DNA of 44,516 nucleotides, taken from a virus. The DNA is taken from positions 1 through 44,516 of the IMG/VR virus record IMGVR_UViG_3300035016_000026. One strand, given 5' to 3'. The notes beneath the pieces are model-generated. The model was not told the origin of the DNA and searched no databases. It saw nothing but the letters and a program-made list of their open reading frames with translations. Positions 2,734 to 38,210 of this stretch are shown here, in pieces (the stretch's first letter is position 1; every line of letters starts with the position of its first letter). The translations under genes and the position numbers were made by a program.

Positions 2734-2870
2734 GATCCGTCTCCGATCTCGTGGGGATAGTCATCGGCGCCACGCGGGCCATAGACCTGCCGCCACCACA
2801 CCCAGGCCAGCAGCGCGCCGAAAGCCAGCAGCGCGCCGGTGCCGAACAACAGCGGCCCCAGCGTACTCAT
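2730..2870 (-). CDS. 46-residue single-helix membrane protein, holin candidate
   Basis: This short gene reads MSTLGPLLFGTGALLAFGAL and then LAWVWWRQVYGPRGADDY, ending at a TGA. One hydrophobic helix covers about residues 5-26, followed by a short polar, acidic tail. Its ATG (2868-2870) overlaps the TGA of the endolysin gene, and its TGA overlaps the GTG of the next gene, so it is locked into a coupled lysis operon. Size, single helix and position fit a small holin or holin regulator. No specific family is recognised. Alternatively it assists the membrane-tailed endolysin. Confidence 0.65.
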   Translation of the reverse strand: MSTLGPLLFGTGALLAFGALLAWVWWRQVYGPRGADDYPHEIGDGS

Positions 2871-3868
2871 CGCCGCTCTCCCGACTGGAACGCGGCAACT
2901 CCGGCAGTCTCGCCCGCCTTGGCTCGCTGGTAGAGCCAGAATGCCACCCCGGCGACGGCGAGACCGTAAAACCAGGCGGGGACGTCGCCGGCGAGGTTGA
3001 AAAGTGGCTGCAGCGCTTCCTGCGCACCCTCGACCTCGCCGACGACGCCCATGATGGCGGTGTAGGCAGCTGCGCCGATGGCCGCGACCTTGCCCCAGAG
3101 CTTGGCGAAGTGGTTGGCCTTCACCTCTGGCACCTTCTCGCGCACAACCTTGGGCGGCGCCGCGGTGCGCTCAGGGCTCAGTTGGCGCCTCGGGGCCGCG
3201 AGGATCTCGGTGAGCAGCGCCTTGGTCGGCTCGCCGGTCAGCGGAAGGCCGTTGTCCGCCTCGAAAGCGACGATTGCGCCTCGGGTCTTGGTGCCGTAGA
3301 TGCCGTCGACCTCGCCGACCTCCGGGTAGCCCTTCGCGAGCAGCTGCTCCTGCACGGCCCGCACCAGGTCGGCATCGGCCGCGGGAGCGGCTGCAGGACG
3401 AGCCGGGCGCGTGACTGCTGGTGCCGGCGGTCGCCTGTAGCCCAGCAGCGACTTCTTGGAGTAGCGGGCGACGGTGACGGCGTTGCTCTGGTTGCCGCCG
3501 ATCACCCAGACGTGCGTCTTATCCTCGCCGAGGTAGAAGGCGACATGGCCCTGCCAGGCGCTGTTGCCGCGCTTGAACACGACAACGTCGCCGCGCTGCG
3601 GCTTCGTCACCTCCTGCCCCCAATCGAGATACGAGCGGGCAGCGAGCGATCCGGTCCCCTTGATGCCGGCGCGGCCGAGCATAGCGTGCTCGAAGGCGGC
3701 ACACCACGCGGTCTCGTCGTCCTTCACCCAAGGGTGGCCGGCCTCAGCAAAGAACTCAAGGACCTGGCCCTCGTGCCTGCTGCCGACGATCGCCGTCAGG
3801 CCCTCGAGCGCGAACGCTTCCACCAGCCATTCGGGGTCCTCAGGCTGCAGCGTCTTGATATCGGTCAT
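2867..3868 (-). CDS. Endolysin: TIGR02594-type peptidase, peptidoglycan-binding domain and membrane tail
   Basis: The 333-residue protein has three parts. Residues about 10-148 resemble the TIGR02594 CHAP-like family, with WCAAF (Cys56), GDVVVF (93-98), a GHVAFY histidine (His108) and GGNQ (124-127). Residues about 165-222 form a peptidoglycan-binding type 1 domain (LVRAVQEQLLAKG, VDGIYGTKT). Residues about 255-316 hold one or two hydrophobic helices (VAAIGAAAYTAIMGVVG and WFYGLAVAGVAFWLY). It should cut peptide bonds of the cell wall. The C-terminal helices would tether it to the inner membrane. It is the first gene of the lysis operon, directly after a terminator. Confidence 0.85.
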   Translation of the reverse strand: MTDIKTLQPEDPEWLVEAFALEGLTAIVGSRHEGQVLEFFAEAGHPWVKDDETAWCAAFEHAMLGRAGIKGTGSLAARSYLDWGQEVTKPQRGDVVVFKRGNSAWQGHVAFYLGEDKTHVWVIGGNQSNAVTVARYSKKSLLGYRRPPAPAVTRPARPAAAPAADADLVRAVQEQLLAKGYPEVGEVDGIYGTKTRGAIVAFEADNGLPLTGEPTKALLTEILAAPRRQLSPERTAAPPKVVREKVPEVKANHFAKLWGKVAAIGAAAYTAIMGVVGEVEGAQEALQPLFNLAGDVPAWFYGLAVAGVAFWLYQRAKAGETAGVAAFQSGERR

Positions 3869-27206: not shown

Positions 27207-28199
27207 TCACCCGCTCGCTGCTGTCGGCGGGGCGCGCGGATCGTTCAGCGCGATCAGCAGCGCCTGGAGACCGGAGCCCCGATGACGCAGCTCGGCGTCC
27301 ACCGCACGCTGCAGAGTGGCGTCGTCCACCTCGCTGAGGAGGGTGACATAGCTGTCCTTGCCGAGAGACTTGAGGTGAGCATGGGTGGCGGCCCAGACAC
27401 GGCTTTGCGCCGCACCGCGGGCTGCATCCCCCATGGCCATGCCGCCGCCACCAGACACCGGGTAGAGGAACTCGCGCTGCCGGCTGTCCGGCGGCTTCGC
27501 GCGGTGCCTGCCACCACCACTGGACTCTCCGATGGGTTTCCTTCTCAGGTTTTGGCGGACTCTTTCGTCCGGGTCGGCGGACCGCAGAGTCCGGGTCGGA
27601 GCAGAGTCCGCCTCGTTCATCTTCGGCCCGGCAACCTCTGAGGCTACGGCCGCGGCGCGCAGTGCAGCCCACGTCGGAACATAGGCGTTGCGATGCGAAT
27701 AGCCGCCATGGATGACCCGCCGGAAGAGGCCCGCGTGAACCAGCTCCGCCACCGCCCGCCGGACCGATCTCATCGTAAGATCAAGGTCCTCGGCGAGCCC
27801 GGCTGTGCTCGGGTCGCAGCGTCCGGAAGTGAGATTGTAGCGCTCGATCAGCCTTCCACCGACCTTGCGCGCCGCCGGCGATAGGCCCGGCATCATCAGT
27901 AGCGCCGCCCTGGCGACGGATTTGGGCCCGCCCCCCGAAGCGGTCGCCGCGCCGTCCATCGGAACATGAACGACCCGGACTCCCGAGTCCGCCTCATTCA
28001 TCTTCGGCGCCGGAGAGGCGGGCCGCTGTTGCGCGGGCGACACAGCGGTTTCAGGCGCCAGCGCCCTCCGCACCGCGCGCAGGAGCTCCTGCTCAACCTT
28101 CCAGTCGCGCGCCGCCCGCGCGGCCGCGACCAGCTGATCGGCGCTGCAGCCGGCGGCAGCCAGGCGTTCGAGCAGGAAGTGCAACTCACCGAGGGTCAT
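27207..28199 (-). CDS. Winged-helix replication-type DNA-binding protein
   Basis: The 330-residue protein has a winged helix at about residues 105-178 (SPAARKVGGRLIERYNL, AGLAEDLDLTMRSVRRAVAE, LVHAGLFRRV), the type found in phage replication initiators. It has polar, proline-rich flanks, and a C-terminal helical part (RVWAATHAHLKSLGKDSY). The peptide PKMNEADS occurs twice, at 65-72 and 192-199, encoded by a near-identical 24-base repeat. GANTC-containing repeats lie within the gene, as iterons lie in lambda O. It overlaps the TSCPD-like gene by four bases. Replication initiation is likely but not proven. Confidence 0.65.
   Translation of the reverse strand: MTLGELHFLLERLAAAGCSADQLVAAARAARDWKVEQELLRAVRRALAPETAVSPAQQRPASPAPKMNEADSGVRVVHVPMDGAATASGGGPKSVARAALLMMPGLSPAARKVGGRLIERYNLTSGRCDPSTAGLAEDLDLTMRSVRRAVAELVHAGLFRRVIHGGYSHRNAYVPTWAALRAAAVASEVAGPKMNEADSAPTRTLRSADPDERVRQNLRRKPIGESSGGGRHRAKPPDSRQREFLYPVSGGGGMAMGDAARGAAQSRVWAATHAHLKSLGKDSYVTLLSEVDDATLQRAVDAELRHRGSGLQALLIALNDPRAPPTAASG
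27522..28008. repeat. GGACTC/GAGTCC repeat cluster, possible origin iterons
   Basis: Six copies of GGACTC or its complement lie at 27522, 27557, 27587, 27604, 27977 and 27985. A 12-mer GAGTCCGGGTCG occurs at 27587 (plus) and 27971 (minus). A 24-base direct repeat with one mismatch lies at 27604-27627 and 27985-28008. Each hexamer contains GANTC, the CcrM methylation target. The cluster sits inside the replication-type gene. Confidence 0.5.
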
Positions 28200-28531: not shown

Positions 28532-28809
28532 AGCAGGCTCCCCTGCCGGTCATCGGCCGCGGTCGTCAGCCCCTCGCGCAGGGCCAGCCAGCGCGGCACG
28601 CGGATCCGCAGCGTCGAGCCCAGGGCGACCGGCTCGATCTCGATCACCGACTTCGGCAGCCACACCCGGACATCACCCTCGCCGGTGTTGGACACCTGCA
28701 CCGAGAGCGGGCGCGTGCGGTGCAGGTTGACCACCAGCGTCAGCATCTCGCTCTCGTGCGCATCGCGCGGGGCGTTCGGGTGCCGATCCTCATCGAGGAA
28801 GCCGCGCAT
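28528..28809 (-). CDS. Hypothetical 93-residue early protein
   Basis: The start MRGFLDEDRHPNAPRDAHES at 28809 is set by the TGATG overlap with the preceding gene; a longer in-frame opening is shadow. The protein contains LTLVVNLHRTRPLSVQVSNT and VRVWLPKSVIEIEP, suggesting a small beta fold. No family is recognised. It is coupled to both neighbours by overlapping stop and start codons. Confidence 0.6.
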   Translation of the reverse strand: MRGFLDEDRHPNAPRDAHESEMLTLVVNLHRTRPLSVQVSNTGEGDVRVWLPKSVIEIEPVALGSTLRIRVPRWLALREGLTTAADDRQGSLL

Positions 28810-30041
28810 CAGGCGCGTACCTCCGGAAAGCCGTTGTGCTCGACGCCATCGAGGGTCCGACCGGCCTGCTTTTTGCCCAAGCGCCACACGTCCGGCTCAT
28901 CGTCGCGGTGCATTTCCTGACTCATGCGGACGGTTACCGTCTCAAACGACCAGCCGTCGTCGTAATAGCTCGCGGCCTGCTCGGTTCGCGCCGGCGCACG
29001 GCTGGCGCACTCGCCAGGCGCCCACTCCCCCCACTGCTTGAACAGGAAGGCGACGCCGGCGGCAGCGCACTGATCACGCAGTTCGCGCGCCCAATCCGGG
29101 TGCATCGGCCGGGCGCCGGGGCCGCTCTCGCCGCCGACGATCACCCAGTCGAGGAAGACGCCGCCATGCGCGATCGCGGCGGCCTTCGCCATTGCTACGA
29201 TGCTGGCGAGGCCCTCAGGTGAGGGATTGCCGTTGATGTGCATCGCGGGTGCGACGAAGGCGGAAAGGTTCAGCTGCCCCAGCAGCGGCTCGGCCGAGAT
29301 AAACCGCACCGCCGCCGGCGTTTGCAGCAGGTAGGGAATGCGCGTGTCGGCAGTGACCTGATCCTCGACAGAAGTGCCGAGCCAGACGTTGGGGAGGGGC
29401 CACGCCCACTGCATGATCTTCAGCCGGTCCTGCTCATCCCACAGCTCCGCACGTTCGGTGTCGTCGAGCTTGAACTCGCGGATGAACCCCTCGCATTCGC
29501 GCTCGACCTGGTCCCTACGCCCCTCACCCACTGTCTCGGCCGGCACGTCGAAAACGTCGCCGCCGAACTCGAAGCGCTGCGCCGGTGCGGGTTGCCAACG
29601 CTCGAGCATGTATGCCCGCATCCGCTCCGGCCGCTTCGTCAGCACCTGGAAGGTGTGCTGCGGGCAGAGCGCCATCACCGCGAAGATGCGGTCGATCCAC
29701 TCATCGGGCACCGACTCGTGGAACAGGTCCGACATCGAGTTGACGAAGATCTTGCGCGGCCGCTTCCAACGTAGCGGCTGGGTCAGCACCGCTTCGCCGG
29801 CGAACGCAATCTTGCCCGTCCAGCGGGCCTCCCGGCGCGGAGGCAACTGGGTTGTCTTGCCAGCCGCGGCCGTCTTCGTGACGACGAACCTTGCCAGTCC
29901 CTCATACGGCTGTCCCAGCCCGGAGAACCTCGCTGCTACCCCCTCGGCATAGCAGTGCCGGCAGCCCTCCGAGACGCGGCTGCAGCCGCGGAGCGGATTC
30001 CAGGTGGCGTCGGTCCACTCAATTCCGGTGTTATCGGCCAT
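28809..30041 (-). CDS. Gp37/Gp68 family (DUF5131) protein, putative radical SAM type
   Basis: The 410-residue protein starts ADNTGIEWTDATWNPLRGCS and has RVSEGCRHCYAEGVAARF near residues 26-43. The three cysteines (Cys23, Cys30, Cys33) make the C-x6-C-x2-C pattern of this phage family, expected to hold an iron-sulphur cluster. Further family marks are KIFVNSMSDLFHESVP, FQVLTKRPERM, NVWLGTSVEDQ, WVIVGGESGPGARPMHPDWA and FLFKQWGEW. The ATG at 30041 has GGGG just upstream; ATGs at 30050 and 30059 are also possible. The substrate is unknown; family members are spread by phages. Confidence 0.85.
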   Translation of the reverse strand: MADNTGIEWTDATWNPLRGCSRVSEGCRHCYAEGVAARFSGLGQPYEGLARFVVTKTAAAGKTTQLPPRREARWTGKIAFAGEAVLTQPLRWKRPRKIFVNSMSDLFHESVPDEWIDRIFAVMALCPQHTFQVLTKRPERMRAYMLERWQPAPAQRFEFGGDVFDVPAETVGEGRRDQVERECEGFIREFKLDDTERAELWDEQDRLKIMQWAWPLPNVWLGTSVEDQVTADTRIPYLLQTPAAVRFISAEPLLGQLNLSAFVAPAMHINGNPSPEGLASIVAMAKAAAIAHGGVFLDWVIVGGESGPGARPMHPDWARELRDQCAAAGVAFLFKQWGEWAPGECASRAPARTEQAASYYDDGWSFETVTVRMSQEMHRDDEPDVWRLGKKQAGRTLDGVEHNGFPEVRA

Positions 30042-30113
30042 TTGCCCCATTTCCCCCATACACGCACGCCGCGCACCCTTTCCCCGGGCGCGCGGCGCGA
30101 CAGTTCGACGCCG

Positions 30114-31445: not shown

Positions 31446-31739
31446 TCAGTCGAACACACTCTGTGACAGCGTGGCCGCTGCCCCCGCTTTCTCACGATCG
31501 CGGAAGGCCTGCTTGCGCGCCGACTCGCTCAAGCCCCAGACGCCATCGACGCTGTTGGCGATGTAGGGCATCGGCCCCTTGCCCAGCCCCGCCTCGCGCA
31601 GAATGGTGCGCACCGACTCGGCGCGAAGGCCGACACGTCGGCCGATATCGCTCGGCTGGTGCCCGCGCTCGTGCAGGTCGAAGACCCGCTGCCGGCGCTC
31701 GAAGCGCTTGAGCAGGGTCTCGGGGCGCAGATGGCTCAT
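31446..31739 (-). CDS. Helix-turn-helix DNA-binding protein, 97 residues
   Basis: Residues about 10-50 form a helix-turn-helix of the resolvase or transposase type (RRQRVFDLHERGHQPSDIGRR, then VGLRAESVRTILREAGL). The rest is short and polar (VDGVWGLSESARKQAFRDRE). It starts four bases inside the end of the ParB-like gene (ATGA overlap), so it is probably made with that protein. It may regulate the operon or mark its DNA target. Confidence 0.7.
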   Translation of the reverse strand: MSHLRPETLLKRFERRQRVFDLHERGHQPSDIGRRVGLRAESVRTILREAGLGKGPMPYIANSVDGVWGLSESARKQAFRDREKAGAAATLSQSVFD

Positions 31740-33595
31740 TCCGCCGCCTCCAGCCGCTGCTCGAGCACGGTCGCACCGGGGCCGACATAGCTCCGGGTGC
31801 GCAGTTGCGGCGGTAGCCAGCCGGTCTCCCGGGCCCTGGCAGCGGCGTCGGCCGCCATCTCACCCTTCTTGGCGTCCCGCATCGGCTCGCCGGTCATCTC
31901 GCCCCAGGCCAGGGCGACCAGCGCCTTAGTGACGCCCCTGAAATAGTTGTCGGCGTCAAACTTCGGCTGCACATCCGGATCGAGGAAGTCGATCAGCGCC
32001 GCCGTGTCCTCGTGGCGGCCGGTGTTGAAACCGCGGACGTCGACGAGGTCCGCCACGAGCGCCGCCAACTCGCCCATTAGCGCCGATCGCGTGGTCCCCT
32101 GCACGCGCGCCAGCTCCTTCGCGAAGGTCGACGTCTTGTCCGGCGGCACAACCCCCACCGGACGCACATCGATGTTGAGGCGGGGATAGCCGCTGTGCCG
32201 CATCTTGGTCAGAAGCGTCGCGACCAGCAGCTGCAGTGCGATATCGGAATCCGCCGCCACCGTTGCCTGCAGCGCCGAGGTCATCGTCTCATTAAGGCTC
32301 GAGGCGACGTTCGACCCGGGATCCGCGAGCGTCGGCGCCGGCTTGCCGGACGCACTGCCGGATTCCCCCGGCAGTTTGGTACCAGGCCGCACCACCCCCA
32401 GCAGCGGCTCCCGGGAGCCGTCGGGCCAGTAGACGACGCCGGAGAGCTTGCGCTGCTCGGCCGAGAAGACTTTCGGGGCCTTCTCGATGACGCCCTCGCG
32501 CTCGAGCTGTAGCTCGCTGGCCTCATTCCAGGCGGCCTCTTCCTCCTCAGTCCACTCGGCCTCGTCCTCGCCTTCGTAGTCGTCTCGAATACGGGGGTGC
32601 TTCTCCTTGAGGTCCGCAATCTTGCGCTCGAGCGCCGCCACCATGGCGGCTCGTTCCGGGTTCAACTCGCCCGGCTCCGGCCGCAGCTTCGTGGTGGTGT
32701 ACGACAGCGCCTTGTGGCCGCCCCACTGGTCGGTGCCGAACTCGTCGGCGGTCTCGACGAAGAGCCAGCCCTCCGCCAGCCACGCCGCCTTCTGTTCTAC
32801 CCAGTGCGCCGCGATCAGCCGGTCGATCACGTCCTGGCTGATCCACCAGGCTGACTTGTCGTCGAACTCGTCGCCGAGGATCTGCCCGCCGGCGGCGAGG
32901 TAGGCCGTCTTTCCGATCAGCTGCGCCACCGGGCTGCTGCCGGCAACGAGCTGCTGCGTGAAGGCCTGCCGGATCTGGCGCGGCTCGAGTTCCCAGCTGG
33001 CCCTGGCCTCCTTGAGATAGGCAGCCTGCTTCTCCGGCTCCGCCTCGACCGTGAAGGCCTGCGCCGCCGCCATCGTGATCTTGCCTGCATCCAGTGCCTC
33101 GAGCACGTCCGGATGCAACGTCGCGAGCTTCAGCCGCTGCTGCACGCGCTTCTCGGTCACCCCGAAGCGCGCAGCGACGTCCTTGTTGGAGGCATGCCGC
33201 GCGAGTTCGGCGAACAGCCGTACCTCGGCCGACGTCGTCGGCGGCACCCGCTGGATGTTCTCGGCGACGGCTTGTTCGCGCGCCGCGTCATCGCTCTCCT
33301 CGCTGATGACGACGGCCACCGGATAGCGGCCGTTCACTTCCTCGCCGCGGATCAGGGCCTTCTGGTCGCACAGCCGCCGCAGGGCCGCGAGCCGGCGGTT
33401 GCCCGCGGTGACCAGGTACCGGGTGGCGCCGGCAGCCAGCCGAACTTTCAGGCTCTGCAACAGCCCGTGTTCCGGGATCGAGGCGAGGAGATCGTCGAGC
33501 TGGGTGAGCCGCGCCTCCTGGCCGGGCATCGCGAGGATGACCGGGTCGTGGTCGAGGTCCGAGAGGTTCACCTGCGTTGCGACTGTGACTTTCAT
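31736..33595 (-). CDS. ParB/Spo0J-like protein
   Basis: The 619-residue protein has the three ParB motifs: LLASIPEHGLLQSLKVR (37-53), YLVTAGNRRLAALRRL (60-75) and REQAVAENIQRVPPTTSAEV (106-125). A helix-turn-helix follows (NKDVAARFGVTEKRVQQRLK, 137-156). The remaining 450 residues include an acidic stretch (DYEGEDEAEWTEEEEAAWNE) and a C-terminal helical domain. Length is about twice that of chromosomal ParB, as in phage and plasmid ParB-nuclease-like proteins. An AAAGGGA site precedes the ATG. There is no ParA gene nearby; instead a HerA-type ATPase lies directly upstream. Confidence 0.85.
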   Translation of the reverse strand: MKVTVATQVNLSDLDHDPVILAMPGQEARLTQLDDLLASIPEHGLLQSLKVRLAAGATRYLVTAGNRRLAALRRLCDQKALIRGEEVNGRYPVAVVISEESDDAAREQAVAENIQRVPPTTSAEVRLFAELARHASNKDVAARFGVTEKRVQQRLKLATLHPDVLEALDAGKITMAAAQAFTVEAEPEKQAAYLKEARASWELEPRQIRQAFTQQLVAGSSPVAQLIGKTAYLAAGGQILGDEFDDKSAWWISQDVIDRLIAAHWVEQKAAWLAEGWLFVETADEFGTDQWGGHKALSYTTTKLRPEPGELNPERAAMVAALERKIADLKEKHPRIRDDYEGEDEAEWTEEEEAAWNEASELQLEREGVIEKAPKVFSAEQRKLSGVVYWPDGSREPLLGVVRPGTKLPGESGSASGKPAPTLADPGSNVASSLNETMTSALQATVAADSDIALQLLVATLLTKMRHSGYPRLNIDVRPVGVVPPDKTSTFAKELARVQGTTRSALMGELAALVADLVDVRGFNTGRHEDTAALIDFLDPDVQPKFDADNYFRGVTKALVALAWGEMTGEPMRDAKKGEMAADAAARARETGWLPPQLRTRSYVGPGATVLEQRLEAAE

Positions 33596-33619
33596 GGGAG
33601 AATCCCTTTCTGCCGCGCG

Positions 33620-35485
33620 CTACGCGCCGGCTCGGTGAGAAGATGAGGCGTTGGCAACAGGCCGGGGATCGCTGGCCTCCGGCCGGGCAACGCGCCTGAA
33701 GCTCAGTTCCATGCGCTTGGCCTCGGCGGCGACATTGGGATAGGGCCGCCCGATCTTCGCCGCGACGTGGATCAGCAGCTCGCCGGCGGCGCAGCCGTCG
33801 ATGAGGATCTGACGCTCGGCCTCCGACCAGGGGACCCGCTGCTTGTAGCCGAGGAGGCTGGCCTTCGTCCGGATGCCGGCTTCGGTCTTGCCGAGTTCGG
33901 CCGCGATCTCCTTCACCGGCACCTTCGCCTCGTAGCGCAGCCGCAGTGTCTCGATATCCGCCGCCGTCCACGAGTCGGCAGCCCGGCAGTAGTTGTTCTT
34001 CTGGGCGAACTTGAAGATGCCGGTCAGCCCGCGGTGGAAGCCCGCCTGCCGGAGGTCCTCGAGTATTTCACGGTACGGCTTCCCTGCCTCGAGCCCAGCG
34101 ACGGCGATCGCTTTCTCGGGCTCCGTCCAGTAGTTCACCCGGTCCCGCGTAATGCCGAGCCCAATCGCCCGCATCTGCACGGCCACCCGGCCCCGATCGA
34201 AGCCAGCCTCCGCGAGGAGCGTGACTATGTCCGCGATCTTCACCTCGCGGGCATAGCCATCGGCGATGATCTGGTCTTCCGCGTCCGACCAGTTTGACTT
34301 CGCCCGCTCGCTCCTGAGGCCGAGGTCCCTGGCCCGCCCCGAAACCCCGCTGACCGATCGACGCCGGAAGCCGGATGCCTCGAGCCGATCGACGATCTCT
34401 CGAACCTCCAGCTTCTCGCGGTAGCCCTCGGCAATGATCTCGTCCTCGCGGCGGTCCCACCCTCGGCCGCGCCGGCCCTTCCGCGGCTGCTCCACCTGCG
34501 TTTCCGAGGTGGGCACCTGCTGCAGCAGCGCTGCGGCGGCACTGGCGGAAATCCTCGGTGGGGCAACGACCTCCGGCGCCGCACCCTTGTGCCGTGACTG
34601 CACGGGGCCCGCGCGGAAGCGCACCCGGCGCGGCCCGGCGATGGCCGGCCCGATGCCGAGGAATTCGCCGTCGCCGAGGCTGCGGAGCGCCCGGCTGTGC
34701 CCGAGCGTAAAGCCCAGCAGGGCCCCGGCCCGTTCAAGGTCGCGATCGAAGATGGTGCGGCCGACGACGATGTTCGTCGCCTTCGAGACCACCGCCTTCG
34801 ACGTCTCGGCCAATCGCTGCGTCGCGATGACGCCGCACAGCCCGCGCTTGCGGCCGCGCCCCATCAGGTCAGCCAGGGCGGCGATCGCCTGCTTGCGCGT
34901 ATCGGCCTCGACGTCGCCGGTGTCGTAGTGCGGCGCCATCGTCTGTGCTTCGTCGATCAGCACCAGCAGCGGATGCCAGTGCAGCTCCGGCGCCGCGATC
35001 AGCCCCGCCGCCAGGTCGGCGACCAGCTGCAGCCGCTCTTCAGACGTGGCGTCGGAGAGGTCGAGGACGACGCTGTAGCGGTGTTCCCGCAGGTGCAGGG
35101 CAAACGCCCTGCCCCCGATCCGGAGCGCGTCGGCCGCCGTCACCACGGCGACGTCGAAGTGATCGGCAAGCGTTGAGAATTCGCCGTCCGGGTCGACCAG
35201 CACCTGCTGAATGCGACCGAAGGCCTGCTCGAACAGCCGCCGCAGCAGCATCGACTTGCCGGCGCCGCTGTTGCCCTGGATCAGCAGCCGCCCCTCGATC
35301 AGCTTTCCGAGGTCGAAACCGACCGGACCGCCATTGTCGGTGGACTGTCCGATATGCACCGCACCCGGCGCCAGCTCCTGAACGGCAGCGGGTTTCGGAG
35401 AGTCCTTCGGAACGATGTATGGCAGTGGCGCCGTCTTGTTCGAAGGGTGCGTCGCCAGCAGCGCGTTGAGTTGGGCGCGGTTCAT
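33620..35485 (-). CDS. HerA/DUF87-type ATPase with five tandem SANT/GcrA-like DNA-binding repeats
   Basis: The 621-residue protein has an ATPase domain (about 40-300) with Walker A GNSGAGKS (71-78), LVDPDGEF (96-103), Walker B LLVLIDEAQ (173-181) and GLCGVIATQRLAE (215-227), matching HerA/FtsK-type motors. From residue 343 five repeats of about 45-55 residues begin with WD, WS, WT, WT or WS plus acidic residues (at 343, 399, 453, 506 and 553). Each continues as two or three helices ending in a pattern like RARDLGL, MRAIGLG or KASLLGY, which resembles the GcrA/SANT helix-turn-helix. It should be a DNA translocase targeted by the repeats. The start overlaps the next small gene (ATGA). Confidence 0.8.
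   Translation of the reverse strand: MNRAQLNALLATHPSNKTAPLPYIVPKDSPKPAAVQELAPGAVHIGQSTDNGGPVGFDLGKLIEGRLLIQGNSGAGKSMLLRRLFEQAFGRIQQVLVDPDGEFSTLADHFDVAVVTAADALRIGGRAFALHLREHRYSVVLDLSDATSEERLQLVADLAAGLIAAPELHWHPLLVLIDEAQTMAPHYDTGDVEADTRKQAIAALADLMGRGRKRGLCGVIATQRLAETSKAVVSKATNIVVGRTIFDRDLERAGALLGFTLGHSRALRSLGDGEFLGIGPAIAGPRRVRFRAGPVQSRHKGAAPEVVAPPRISASAAAALLQQVPTSETQVEQPRKGRRGRGWDRREDEIIAEGYREKLEVREIVDRLEASGFRRRSVSGVSGRARDLGLRSERAKSNWSDAEDQIIADGYAREVKIADIVTLLAEAGFDRGRVAVQMRAIGLGITRDRVNYWTEPEKAIAVAGLEAGKPYREILEDLRQAGFHRGLTGIFKFAQKNNYCRAADSWTAADIETLRLRYEAKVPVKEIAAELGKTEAGIRTKASLLGYKQRVPWSEAERQILIDGCAAGELLIHVAAKIGRPYPNVAAEAKRMELSFRRVARPEASDPRPVANASSSHRAGA
33695..34459 (-). repeat. Five-fold SANT/GcrA-like repeat region (protein level)
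   Basis: This segment encodes residues 343-597 of the ATPase. The repeats diverge in DNA but share the order W-acidic, I/L-x-x-GY, an IV or IA helix, and a final arginine- or lysine-rich helix ending LGL or LGY. Confidence 0.65.
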
Positions 35486-35676
35486 GACTGACCCTCCACC
35501 AGCTCGAGGCGGCGGGTGCTGCCGAGTTTCCTGTCGATGGCGACGGTACCGCCGTTCGAAACCTCGATCGCATCGACACTGAGCCGCTCCTCCCGACCAT
35601 CCGGCAATGTCGCGACGATGGTCATGCGGGCGCCTGAGCGCTTTGCGGTCCAGCTTCTCAGCCTAAGAGTGGTCAC
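35482..35676 (-). CDS. 64-residue protein between ATPase and methylase genes
   Basis: A GTG at 35676 is preceded by AAGGAG with seven bases spacing and gives TTLRLRSWTAKRSGARMTIV as the N-terminus after the initiator. An ATG at 35730, overlapping the methylase stop, would add 18 low-complexity residues and has no ribosome site of its own; it remains possible through coupling. The protein is basic with strand-like segments (VSNGGTVAIDRKLGSTRRLE). Function unknown. It overlaps the ATPase start. Confidence 0.55.
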   Translation of the reverse strand: MTTLRLRSWTAKRSGARMTIVATLPDGREERLSVDAIEVSNGGTVAIDRKLGSTRRLELVEGQS

Positions 35677-35726
35677 GGTGGAGCTCCTTCTGTTGAGGTT
35701 GTCGTTAGAGGGTGGGCGGCCGGCGC

Positions 35727-37274
35727 TCATGACGCCCGCCGCCGGTTCGCAGCTGCCGACATCAGCTTCTGCCGCTCGCGGCTGCCGAGGCCCATGCGCT
35801 TGGCGCGCTGCTTCACCGCGTTTTCAGAGAGCCCGGTGGCGGCGGCCAGGTCGGCGAGCGGGGTGTTGGCGGCATAGCCGTCGCGGATGATGGTATTGGC
35901 GTCGCCCAGGGCATTGGGTGCGGGGGAAGCCGGGAGGTCGATAGCCTCCTCCCCCGCGTTCTCGACGGACGGTAAAGCGCGTGTACCCCCGCTGGCTACG
36001 CCACTTTCGTGGCCGACCACAGACGCTACATGGGCCGCTTCAGCCGGTCGCTGGACCGTCGGAATAGGTGCGGGAGAGGGTGCGCCCTCCCCCGCGGTCG
36101 CGGTTTCGCTGCTGGGCGCCGCACCGCCATTCGCGCCGGGTTTCTCCCCGGGCAGCTGCTCGGAGGGCATTCCGCCCGTCCGCATCTCCAATACATCGGC
36201 TTCCGGGGCCTCGAGCCCCCAGGCATCCCACCCCGGCCGCAGCCGTCGAGCGTTGAGCTCGATCTTCGGCAGGTTGGGGAAGTAGCTCTCGATCAGCTCA
36301 TGGGCCCAATCGGGCTTTTCGCTGTGGGCGCCCGGGCGTGATGCGATGACCGATGGCCATTGTGTGCCCGGCGCCGGCGCCGGCACATTGCCGCGCGTCC
36401 CCACCAACAGCAGCTCGTGCCGGTTGCGGTTCCAGTAGCCGGTGCCTTCCTCGAGCTTGTCCCAGACGAACTGCGACTTGTACTCGAAGCCCCAGAACCG
36501 CATGACCTCGAGCGCCTGCGGCAGCATCGGCGCCGTCGCCCAGAGGAACAGCACGCAATCGGGCGCCGCCAGCGTCCCCACCGGCCGCGCCTTGATGGTG
36601 GCAAGGTCCGAGGTCGGGTAGTGGTTGTCGGCCGCGCGGTCGAGGCCGGCTTCCGAATAGGTTTCGAACCTCCACTCCGGATCCGCGTAGATCACGCCGT
36701 AGAGCCGGTCCGGCAGCGCCTTCTGCTTGTGCGCCAGCTGCGCCTCACGGATCCGCCGCCGGAGCTTCTTGTCGGCAGTGTTCAGTTCCTTCAGCGGATT
36801 GACGACGATCGCCCGGCCCGCCTCGATCTTGGCCCGGGCCTCGGCGATCACCTGCTCGAACAGCGGCGCGGCCTTCCGCGCCAGCTGCTGGGCATTCATC
36901 GAGAGCTTGCGGTCGATGCCGACGTCAGCGAGGGTGACGCGCAGCGGTCGGCCTGGGCCGGAGCCGGAATCGTCTAAGTGTTCCCCCTCGGAACGGTTAC
37001 CCTCGCGGCCCGGGCGGCGCGCCACCAGCTGGCCGGCTTCCTTGGCCCGGATCAGCATCTCGCCCAGGCGCCGCTCGGACCGCAGCTGCAGCTCGACCGC
37101 GTTGGCGGTGAGCGAACGGTCCTTCGCCTGCCGGCCCGCGACCTTCAGCTGCTCCGCTTCGTTGCGCACCGACAGCACTTCGTCGACCCGCACCGCCTGG
37201 TCGAGCCAGTACACGGCGCGCTCGTAACGGCTGAGGTTGCCAGGCGGTTCGGCGAGGGCGGGAAGGTCGGTCAA
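35727..37274 (-). CDS. MT-A70 family DNA adenine methyltransferase with C-terminal GcrA-like helix-turn-helix
   Basis: The 515-residue protein has an N-terminal helical region (ERRLGEMLIRAKEAGQL). The MT-A70 core (about 190-355) carries YADPEWRFETYS (196-207), AADNHYPTSDLATI, VLFLWATAPMLPQAL, VWDKLEEGTGYWNRNRHELL and a final HSEKPDWAHELIESYFP. The catalytic motif is DPEW (198-201), not the usual DPPW. A proline- and alanine-rich linker leads to a helix-turn-helix (NTIIRDGYAANTPLADLAAA, then ENAVKQRAKRMGLG, 460-497) like the repeats of the neighbouring ATPase. No restriction enzyme is nearby, so it is an orphan methylase, likely giving N6-methyladenine. Confidence 0.85.
   Translation of the reverse strand: MTDLPALAEPPGNLSRYERAVYWLDQAVRVDEVLSVRNEAEQLKVAGRQAKDRSLTANAVELQLRSERRLGEMLIRAKEAGQLVARRPGREGNRSEGEHLDDSGSGPGRPLRVTLADVGIDRKLSMNAQQLARKAAPLFEQVIAEARAKIEAGRAIVVNPLKELNTADKKLRRRIREAQLAHKQKALPDRLYGVIYADPEWRFETYSEAGLDRAADNHYPTSDLATIKARPVGTLAAPDCVLFLWATAPMLPQALEVMRFWGFEYKSQFVWDKLEEGTGYWNRNRHELLLVGTRGNVPAPAPGTQWPSVIASRPGAHSEKPDWAHELIESYFPNLPKIELNARRLRPGWDAWGLEAPEADVLEMRTGGMPSEQLPGEKPGANGGAAPSSETATAGEGAPSPAPIPTVQRPAEAAHVASVVGHESGVASGGTRALPSVENAGEEAIDLPASPAPNALGDANTIIRDGYAANTPLADLAAATGLSENAVKQRAKRMGLGSRERQKLMSAAANRRRAS
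36972..37000. promoter_or_regulatory. GTTCC-N5-GGAAC palindrome within the methylase gene (site B)
   Basis: The core GTTCC-CCCTC-GGAAC lies at 36980-36994. Over 26 bases (36972-36997) it matches site C at 40618-40643 at 22 positions although the two lie in unrelated reading frames. Confidence 0.5.
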
Positions 37275-37527: not shown

Positions 37528-37734
37528 CTAGTGCGACGCAGTGGCCTTCCGCTTTTCCAGTCGTGCCCGTGCCGCCGGCACGACCTCGGCCGGCACGTTG
37601 ATCGCCTTGCGCCGCAACCAGTCGCTGCGATCCCTGCCGTCCAGCTGCTGCCACTCGGTGAGGCAGGCGGCCGCGAAGGCCCGGCTCTTGGCCACGGTCA
37701 CGGAGACGTATTCCCGTCCGTCCTGTCCGATCAT
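37528..37734 (-). CDS. 68-residue early protein, unknown
   Basis: The protein reads IGQDGREYVSVTVAKSRAFA and later ACLTEWQQLDGRDRSDWLRR, polar and basic, with no membrane segment. Its ATG overlaps the TGA of the CII-like gene. It is likely part of the same early transcript. Family not recognised. Confidence 0.6.
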   Translation of the reverse strand: MIGQDGREYVSVTVAKSRAFAAACLTEWQQLDGRDRSDWLRRKAINVPAEVVPAARARLEKRKATASH

Positions 37735-38210
37735 TCGCCCCCCCTGCTCTCGGCTTCGACCTGCAGGTCGAGCGCGGCCAGGGCGGTCATCGCCTCCTGA
37801 ATCTCGCGACGGAACGCCACGCGCTCGGCCTGGGTGATTTTTTCGTCGTCGAGGACGGCGCCGATCCGCACGAAGACTTCGGCGGTTTCCTTCATCGCCT
37901 TCCCGGTGATGCGCCCCAGCGGGGAATTGCTCCGCACCACCGCCGGCATCGGCACCAGGATGTGATTGCTGAGGCGCGCGAGCTCGCGGGTGACTACCGG
38001 TCCCACTTCGGACTCGAGATCGGCGATGATGTCGATCGGCGCGAAGCGCTCGGCGTACTCGGCCTCAAGCGAACCGTAGTTCGAGACTTCCTGCTGCCGC
38101 ACCCGGGTCAGCGATGCGGCATGCGTGGTGCCACCGAGGCGCCGCACCAGCTCGCGGAAAACCGTCTTGAGGCCGTTGTACTCGGAGCGTGGAAGCTGGC
38201 GCGCAGTCAT
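37731..38210 (-). CDS. Phage CII-like regulatory protein
   Basis: The 159-residue protein has an N-terminal helix-turn-helix-like segment (LKTVFRELVRRLGGTTHAAS, then TRVRQQEVSNYGSL), followed by EYAERFAPIDIIADLESEVG and VVTRELARLSNH. This resembles the phage regulatory CII (CP76) family, whose members pair a GG-x(3)-A-A helix-turn-helix with the PID(I/V) segment. A GAGG element precedes the start at 38210. It is the first minus-strand gene after the Cro-like gene, as cII follows cro in lambda. A role in the lysis-lysogeny choice or early control is inferred. Confidence 0.65.
   Translation of the reverse strand: MTARQLPRSEYNGLKTVFRELVRRLGGTTHAASLTRVRQQEVSNYGSLEAEYAERFAPIDIIADLESEVGPVVTRELARLSNHILVPMPAVVRSNSPLGRITGKAMKETAEVFVRIGAVLDDEKITQAERVAFRREIQEAMTALAALDLQVEAESRGGE

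What the first reader, a model, noticed from the sequence alone, without database searches (positions are those of the whole stretch)
31446..37274. ParB - HerA ATPase with five DNA-binding repeats - MT-A70 methylase: an unnamed phage module
Seen: a 619-residue ParB-like protein, a HerA/DUF87-type ATPase whose C-terminal 255 residues are five tandem SANT/GcrA-like repeats, a small protein and an MT-A70 methylase are consecutive minus-strand genes, most with overlapping ends. A helix-turn-helix gene overlaps the end. Known: HerA motors with nuclease partners (NurA, SIR2, DUF4297) act in repair and defence, ParB proteins bind and slide on DNA, and MT-A70 enzymes modify adenine. Inferred: the repeats aim a DNA motor at sites set or read through methylation, serving phage DNA replication, partition or defence. 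No helicase, primase or ParA is seen in the phage, so this block may replace them.
Basis: partly seen in the sequence, partly recalled or inferred. Interest (0 to 1): 0.8.

Follow-up and report, generated by a model that had tools for sequence, protein, structure and literature searches.

The report
Phage DNA motor with five-unit DNA-binding tail
A bacterial virus carries a small ring-type DNA motor tethered to five repeated DNA-binding units, sitting in a swappable gene slot just upstream of a DNA-clamp (ParB) gene; related motors recur in phages, plasmids and bacterial chromosomes, but the methylase next to it belongs to this phage's own operon and not to the motor.

Summary
The genes are real and at the stated coordinates: ParB-type CTPase clamp, minimal HerA/FtsK-type ATPase with five tandem three-helix DNA-binding repeats (T5-D5/Myb/GcrA-like), small ORF, MT-A70 methylase. 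Neighbourhood searches split the proposed four-gene module. The ATPase-repeat gene recurs in 17 phage records and lies by ParB in 10 (directly upstream in 9), from three separate ParB lineages. MT-A70 accompanies it only here; none of 80 close MT-A70 relatives has this ATPase within about 8 kb. The phages whose ParB and MT-A70 are closest keep MT-A70 and ParB in the same early operon without the ATPase. Between nearly identical phages the slot upstream of ParB is swapped: fused ATPase-repeats, split ATPase plus repeat gene, or two HNH-nuclease genes. The ATPase is therefore an exchangeable accessory, not an essential replication function. The phage has an O-like initiator with an iteron-like cluster, so the block does not replace a replication initiator. 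Split versions occur on sphingomonad plasmids; a repeat-free chromosomal homologue occurs in nearly half of 398 sampled genomes of one order. Best reading: an optional, site-directed dsDNA translocase acting beside a ParB clamp; role untested. New variant of a known kind.

The parts
31446..31739 (-). small HTH protein, 97 aa, last gene of the block; no relative found in ATPase-bearing phages
31736..33595 (-). ParB-type protein, 619 aa: ParB_N CTPase domain plus HTH (residues about 24-215), conserved C-terminal region ending GWLPPQLR; no ParA-binding motif
33620..35485 (-). Minimal HerA/FtsK-type ATPase (core about residues 45-310; Walker A GNSGAGKS 71-78, Walker B LVLIDEAQ) fused to five DNA-binding repeats (343-599)
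33689..34459 (-). region coding the five three-helix (D5/Myb/GcrA-like) repeats, residues 343-599 of the ATPase
35482..35730 (-). 82-aa ORF of unknown function overlapping both neighbours
35727..37274 (-). MT-A70 adenine methyltransferase, 515 aa, with a C-terminal HTH (461-500) resembling one ATPase repeat
37731..38210 (-). CII-like activator, start of the early operon; CII-like then MT-A70 is conserved in related phages
28809..30059 (-). DUF5131 (Gp37/Gp68) gene, recurrent in ParB and ATPase neighbourhoods
27207..28199 (-). O-like replication initiator, with GGACTC cluster (27522-27990) at a lambda-ori-like position

Best explanation
The block is part of a CII-led early operon of a temperate-type tailed phage. 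MT-A70 and ParB are residents of that operon in this phage's relatives; the ATPase gene is an optional insert in an exchangeable slot directly upstream of ParB. The ATPase is a minimal HerA/FtsK-type ring motor without a recognisable N-terminal HAS barrel and without a nuclease gene beside it. Its five homeodomain/Myb-like units act as a sequence-reading tether, as the gamma domain does for FtsK. Proposed mechanism: the repeats dock on specific sites, the core assembles around the duplex and translocates, displacing or repositioning proteins on that DNA; ParB loads and spreads as a separate CTP clamp on the same DNA; MT-A70 marks adenines independently. Because near-identical phages carry HNH-nuclease genes in its place, the benefit is most likely accessory (remodelling or competing with DNA-bound host, plasmid or rival-phage complexes) and not core replication. 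Shown: genes, domains, repeats, slot exchange, recurrence. Inferred: hexamer, translocation, site specificity, benefit.
For: HerA fold and motifs; repeats; D5-like PHROG 1.7e-22; repeats match the HTH protein 2LVS at 6e-9. Slot exchange: L124 vs L004, five upstream genes and ParB 79-91% identical but split ATPase plus repeat gene against fused gene at 44%; L131 vs L010, flanks 85-100% and ParB 93% identical but two HNH_3 genes in place of the ATPase. Sisters without ATPase: L176 (ParB 46%, MT-A70 58%, DUF5131 52%, O-like 39%) and L172. Window ATPase 72% but ParB 28% identical to L003, so they were joined separately. ParB tree: ATPase-linked rows in three separate places. Split two-gene form on plasmids.
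Against: No activity is known for any member. Three separate joinings of the ATPase to ParB could equally mean a dedicated partnership. A repeat-free, wHTH-like-tailed homologue sits on ordinary chromosomes in nearly half of 398 sampled genomes of the order, which suggests a cellular maintenance role for the family. Absence of the HAS barrel rests on sequence; the model is poor for residues 12-76.
Confidence: 0.5

Rival explanations
1. Dedicated ParB-motor pair: the repeat-tethered ATPase and the ParB clamp act together on phage or plasmid DNA as a ParA-independent organiser or partition machine.
For: Directly upstream of ParB in 9 of 94 ParB loci and close by in 10 of 17 ATPase records, from three ParB lineages; 4-bp overlap in seven phages and short gaps (22-24 bp) in two; a second HerA-type family also lies 2-3 genes from ParB in L133 and L162, and a HerA-annotated gene lies three genes from a putative segregation gene in MW202482. 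ParB N-terminal third is a canonical CTPase-HTH clamp.
Against: HNH genes in the same slot overlap ParB by the same 4 bp; 7 of 17 ATPase records show no ParB and most ParB loci lack the ATPase; ATPase and ParB have discordant histories; no parS-like site found.
Confidence: 0.2
2. Regulatory switch: the D5-like array and ParB (KorB- or Noc-like) control early/late transcription, the ATPase remodelling the complexes.
For: Repeat region belongs to the PHROG named 'transcriptional regulator, D5-like'; GcrA-family genes near the ATPase in L003 and L022 and a GapR-like gene next to it in L033; ParB relatives such as KorB silence genes at a distance (PMC11790492).
Against: ATPase is exchangeable with HNH genes; no site or promoter target identified; a DNA-pumping ATPase is unusual for a regulator.
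Confidence: 0.15
3. Anti-invader system: the ATPase works in superinfection exclusion or defence, as other HerA proteins do.
For: PADLOC mad8 profile matched nearly full length (1.2e-14) and several HerA defence models; slot shared with HNH nucleases; HerA/FtsK capture systems described (PMC10853773, PMC12839542).
Against: No nuclease or other effector beside it in the window; sits in the early operon; no other mad profile hit in the block; chromosomal-type homologue L085 lies among metabolic genes.
Confidence: 0.12
4. One reading: methylation-directed motor that replaces replication functions.
For: Different methylases lie next to the ATPase in several elements: N6_Mtase in L003/L007 and plasmid pLA4, CcrM-like in L021, phage N6A type in L011; MT-A70 carries one similar HTH.
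Against: MT-A70 in 1 of 17 records; the MT-A70 HTH is also present in L173, which has no ATPase nearby; O-like initiator present; primase and helicase-like ATPase present in ATPase-ParB phages.
Confidence: 0.03

Closest known systems
HerA/FtsK superfamily of dsDNA translocases (HerA-NurA, HerA-DUF4297, SIR2-HerA)
   Same: RecA-type core, Walker A/B, best structural matches 8xau, 8woc, 8ziq
   Different: Core only, about 45 residues before it, no nuclease partner, five C-terminal DNA-binding repeats; far below NCBIfam HerA cut-offs (30 vs 800 bits)
T5 D5-like proteins (PHROG 323) and Myb/GcrA/homeodomain arrays
   Same: Tandem three-helix DNA-binding units; 1.7e-22 to PHROG 323; plasmid split version hits Pfam Myb above cut-off
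   Different: Here fused to a motor; window protein alone is below Pfam Myb and GcrA cut-offs
ParB-CTPase clamps (ParB, Noc, KorB)
   Same: N-terminal CTPase plus HTH, box-II arginine, Foldseek matches at about 1e-8
   Different: About 600 aa with a conserved C-terminal region, no ParA-binding motif, no ParA gene seen
FtsK with gamma domain; Streptomyces TraB (from memory)
   Same: dsDNA motor with a C-terminal sequence-reading HTH module
   Different: No membrane domain, different HTH class, not homologous in the tail
Phage ParB-methyltransferase fusions (PMC12704722)
   Same: ParB and a DNA methylase linked in phages; L191 shows a ParB_N-MT-A70 fusion related to the window MT-A70
   Different: Separate genes here with the ATPase between them

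Membership tests
HerA/FtsK superfamily | RecA-type core with Walker A and B and HerA-like fold | tested here: met
Canonical HerA (HerA-NurA type) | N-terminal HAS barrel | tested here: inconclusive
   only about 45 residues precede the core, and chromosomal homologues have about 4; model unreliable for residues 12-76
Canonical HerA (HerA-NurA type) | adjacent nuclease partner | tested here: not met
   no nuclease family among block genes
Canonical HerA (HerA-NurA type) | score above NCBIfam HerA cut-off | tested here: not met
   30 bits against 800
MADS defence (mad8) | match to mad8 profile | tested here: met
   1.2e-14, positions 7-314 of 314
MADS defence (mad8) | other mad genes alongside | tested here: not met
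   no other mad profile hit in the six block proteins scanned
ParABS partition system | ParB CTPase plus HTH domains | tested here: met
ParABS partition system | ParA gene and ParA-binding motif in ParB | tested here: not met
   motif absent in all 12 ParBs checked; no ParA among scanned window ORFs
ParABS partition system | parS sites | tested here: inconclusive
   no shared palindrome or repeat family near ParB
D5-like repeat proteins (PHROG 323) | profile match to the repeat region | tested here: met
   1.7e-22, three stretches
GcrA | Pfam GcrA above cut-off | tested here: not met
   no hit in window protein; 21.8 vs 26.9 bits in plasmid repeat protein
MT-A70 methyltransferases | Pfam MT-A70 above cut-off | tested here: met
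   74.5 vs 23.9 bits
PRTRC ParB | NCBIfam cut-off | tested here: not met
   54 vs 278.6 bits

The most novel reading that the evidence does not exclude
A ParA-independent DNA-handling machine in which a repeat-tethered HerA-type motor works on the nucleoprotein complex laid down by a ParB clamp, assembled independently in at least three phage lineages, with relatives on plasmids and a conserved chromosomal version of unknown function.
Probability: 0.15. Interest if true: 0.8.

Novelty: new variant of a known kind. Interest (0 to 1): 0.5.

Why it matters
It defines a compact family of DNA motors (ATPase core plus D5/Myb-like array, fused or as a two-gene pair) shared by phages and plasmids, with a chromosomal homologue common in Hyphomicrobiales; no description of it turned up in the papers searched. 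The swaps between nearly identical phages show directly which gene is optional and give matched natural strains for testing what a site-tethered HerA motor does beside a ParB clamp without ParA.

Tried and rejected
Four-gene conserved module: rejected, MT-A70 and ATPase stand together only here. Replacement of replication genes: rejected. Methylase-ATPase link through a shared repeat: weakened, since the MT-A70 HTH occurs without the ATPase. Methylase enrichment near the ATPase: suggestive only; several seeds were chosen because they were adjacent, and unbiased family scans found both adjacent and distant methylases. parS or target sites by repeat search: nothing convincing. ParB-like start of the Bradyrhizobium phage MT-A70 (L089): noticed by eye, not confirmed. 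Literature search for HerA with ParB in phages gave no description of this pair. A direct viral-collection search with the window ParB alone found no relative; the alignment search did. Gene calls in related loci come from a home-made predictor, so small ORFs are uncertain.
Full report
What is there. The window is a 44.5-kb IMG/VR virus record with lambda-type head, tail and regulatory genes. The block is on the minus strand: CII-like activator, two small ORFs, MT-A70, 82-aa ORF, ATPase, ParB, HTH protein, then further early genes (DUF2303, DUF5131) and an O-like initiator at 27207-28199. Coordinates and family labels in the finding are correct. Neighbours overlap by 4 bp, except ParB and ATPase, which are 24 bp apart.

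The ATPase. The core (about residues 45-310) matches DUF87 and HerA profiles, and its model matches HerA structures best. Residues 343-599 hold five repeats, supported by shuffles, a family repeat profile and five predicted three-helix units. They belong to the D5-like PHROG 323; the best solved relative by sequence is the small HTH protein 2LVS. Seventeen related fused proteins form one clade. A second form keeps ATPase and repeats as two overlapping or adjoining genes, on sphingomonad plasmids, in faecal phage contigs and in L124 and L110; the plasmid repeat protein has seven units and passes the Pfam Myb cut-off. A chromosomal homologue with a different, winged-helix-like tail (read by eye) accounts for most of the matches found in 185 of 398 sampled genomes of the order and 20 of 385 of the class at E <= 1e-60; a few of these matches are phage-type copies.

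Is the neighbourhood conserved? In 17 records with the fused ATPase, ParB_N was found close by in 10, directly downstream in 9 and 1.2 kb away in L006. In a ParB tree, ATPase-linked rows fall in three separate places, each beside ATPase-less rows. Many losses cannot be excluded, but window ATPase and ParB have different nearest kin: the ATPase is 72% identical to L003, whose ParB is only 28% identical, while the nearest ParB (46%) is in L176, which has no ATPase. MT-A70 was found in 1 of the 17 records. Of 80 close MT-A70 relatives none has the ATPase within about 8 kb, but about ten have ParB in the same stretch, and L191 fuses a ParB_N domain to MT-A70. CII-like then MT-A70 is conserved. So MT-A70 and ParB are recurrent early-operon neighbours, ATPase and ParB are another recurrent pair, and the window joins the two. 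One further contig, L110, holds a split ATPase, ParB and a short MT-A70 in one stretch, but scattered and on both strands.

The slot. L124 and L004 share flanking genes at 63-91% identity and ParB at 87%, yet one has a split ATPase plus repeat gene and the other the fused gene (44% identical). L131 and L010 share flanks at 85-100% and ParB at 93%, yet L131 has a small gene and two HNH genes where L010 has the ATPase. The HNH genes overlap ParB by the same 4 bp, so tight spacing is a property of the slot, not proof of partnership. Among 94 ParB loci the gene directly upstream was the fused ATPase in 9, a repeat array in 1, HNH in 3, MT-A70 in 2, and mostly small unknown proteins otherwise. The ATPase is therefore dispensable and exchangeable.

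Replication. The window has an O-like initiator with a GGACTC cluster, and ATPase-ParB phages of the L003 group also encode a DnaG-type primase and a helicase-like ATPase. A Mu-like phage (L019) carries the ATPase without ParB. The ATPase is thus not tied to one replication mode.

ParB. The first 215 residues are a canonical CTPase-HTH clamp by sequence and by model; none of 12 relatives has the ParA-binding motif defined in PMC12704722. The long C-terminal region is conserved within the family and unassigned.

Methylation. Adjacent methylases of several families occur in five kinds of element (window, L003/L007, L011, L021, plasmid pLA4), but other methylases in the same records are far away and numbers are too small for a claim. 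The MT-A70 C-terminal HTH resembles one ATPase repeat (7e-6), but occurs in L173 without the ATPase.

Verdict. Observation confirmed; interpretation partly supported. The most likely reading is an accessory, site-tethered HerA/FtsK-type translocase in an exchangeable slot beside a ParB clamp. Its benefit is inferred, not shown.

Noticed in passing
window 27522-27990: Six of the window's 17 GGACTC copies lie within 480 bp inside the O-like gene, an iteron-like origin candidate.
   Followed up: partly
window 28809-30059: DUF5131 (Gp37/Gp68) gene recurs near the ATPase (L033, L021, L022, L020) and near ParB in Microcystis phages (L016, L017).
   Followed up: partly
L002, L006, L011, L012, L013: A second, distantly related HerA-type ATPase gene lies next to or near the first; a relative of it lies near ParB in L133 and L162.
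   Followed up: partly
L033:767-1450: GapR-like DNA-binding gene directly downstream of the ATPase, followed by an HNH gene.
   Followed up: no
L020:2195-4894: Diversity-generating-retroelement-like genes (reverse transcriptase and Mtd-like protein) beside the ATPase.
   Followed up: no
L172:6892-7713: A 273-aa protein that looks ParB/Srx-like by eye occupies the slot upstream of ParB in a close relative.
   Followed up: no
L131:4488-5956: Two HNH_3 genes, with SANT-like N-terminal repeats by eye, replace the ATPase in a nearly identical phage.
   Followed up: yes
window 2870-2960: ARAGORN tRNA-Trp call lies inside an endolysin-like ORF and is probably spurious.
   Followed up: no
L081:1492-3000: Chromosomal ATPase homologue with winged-helix-like tail, common in Hyphomicrobiales, function unknown.
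   Followed up: partly
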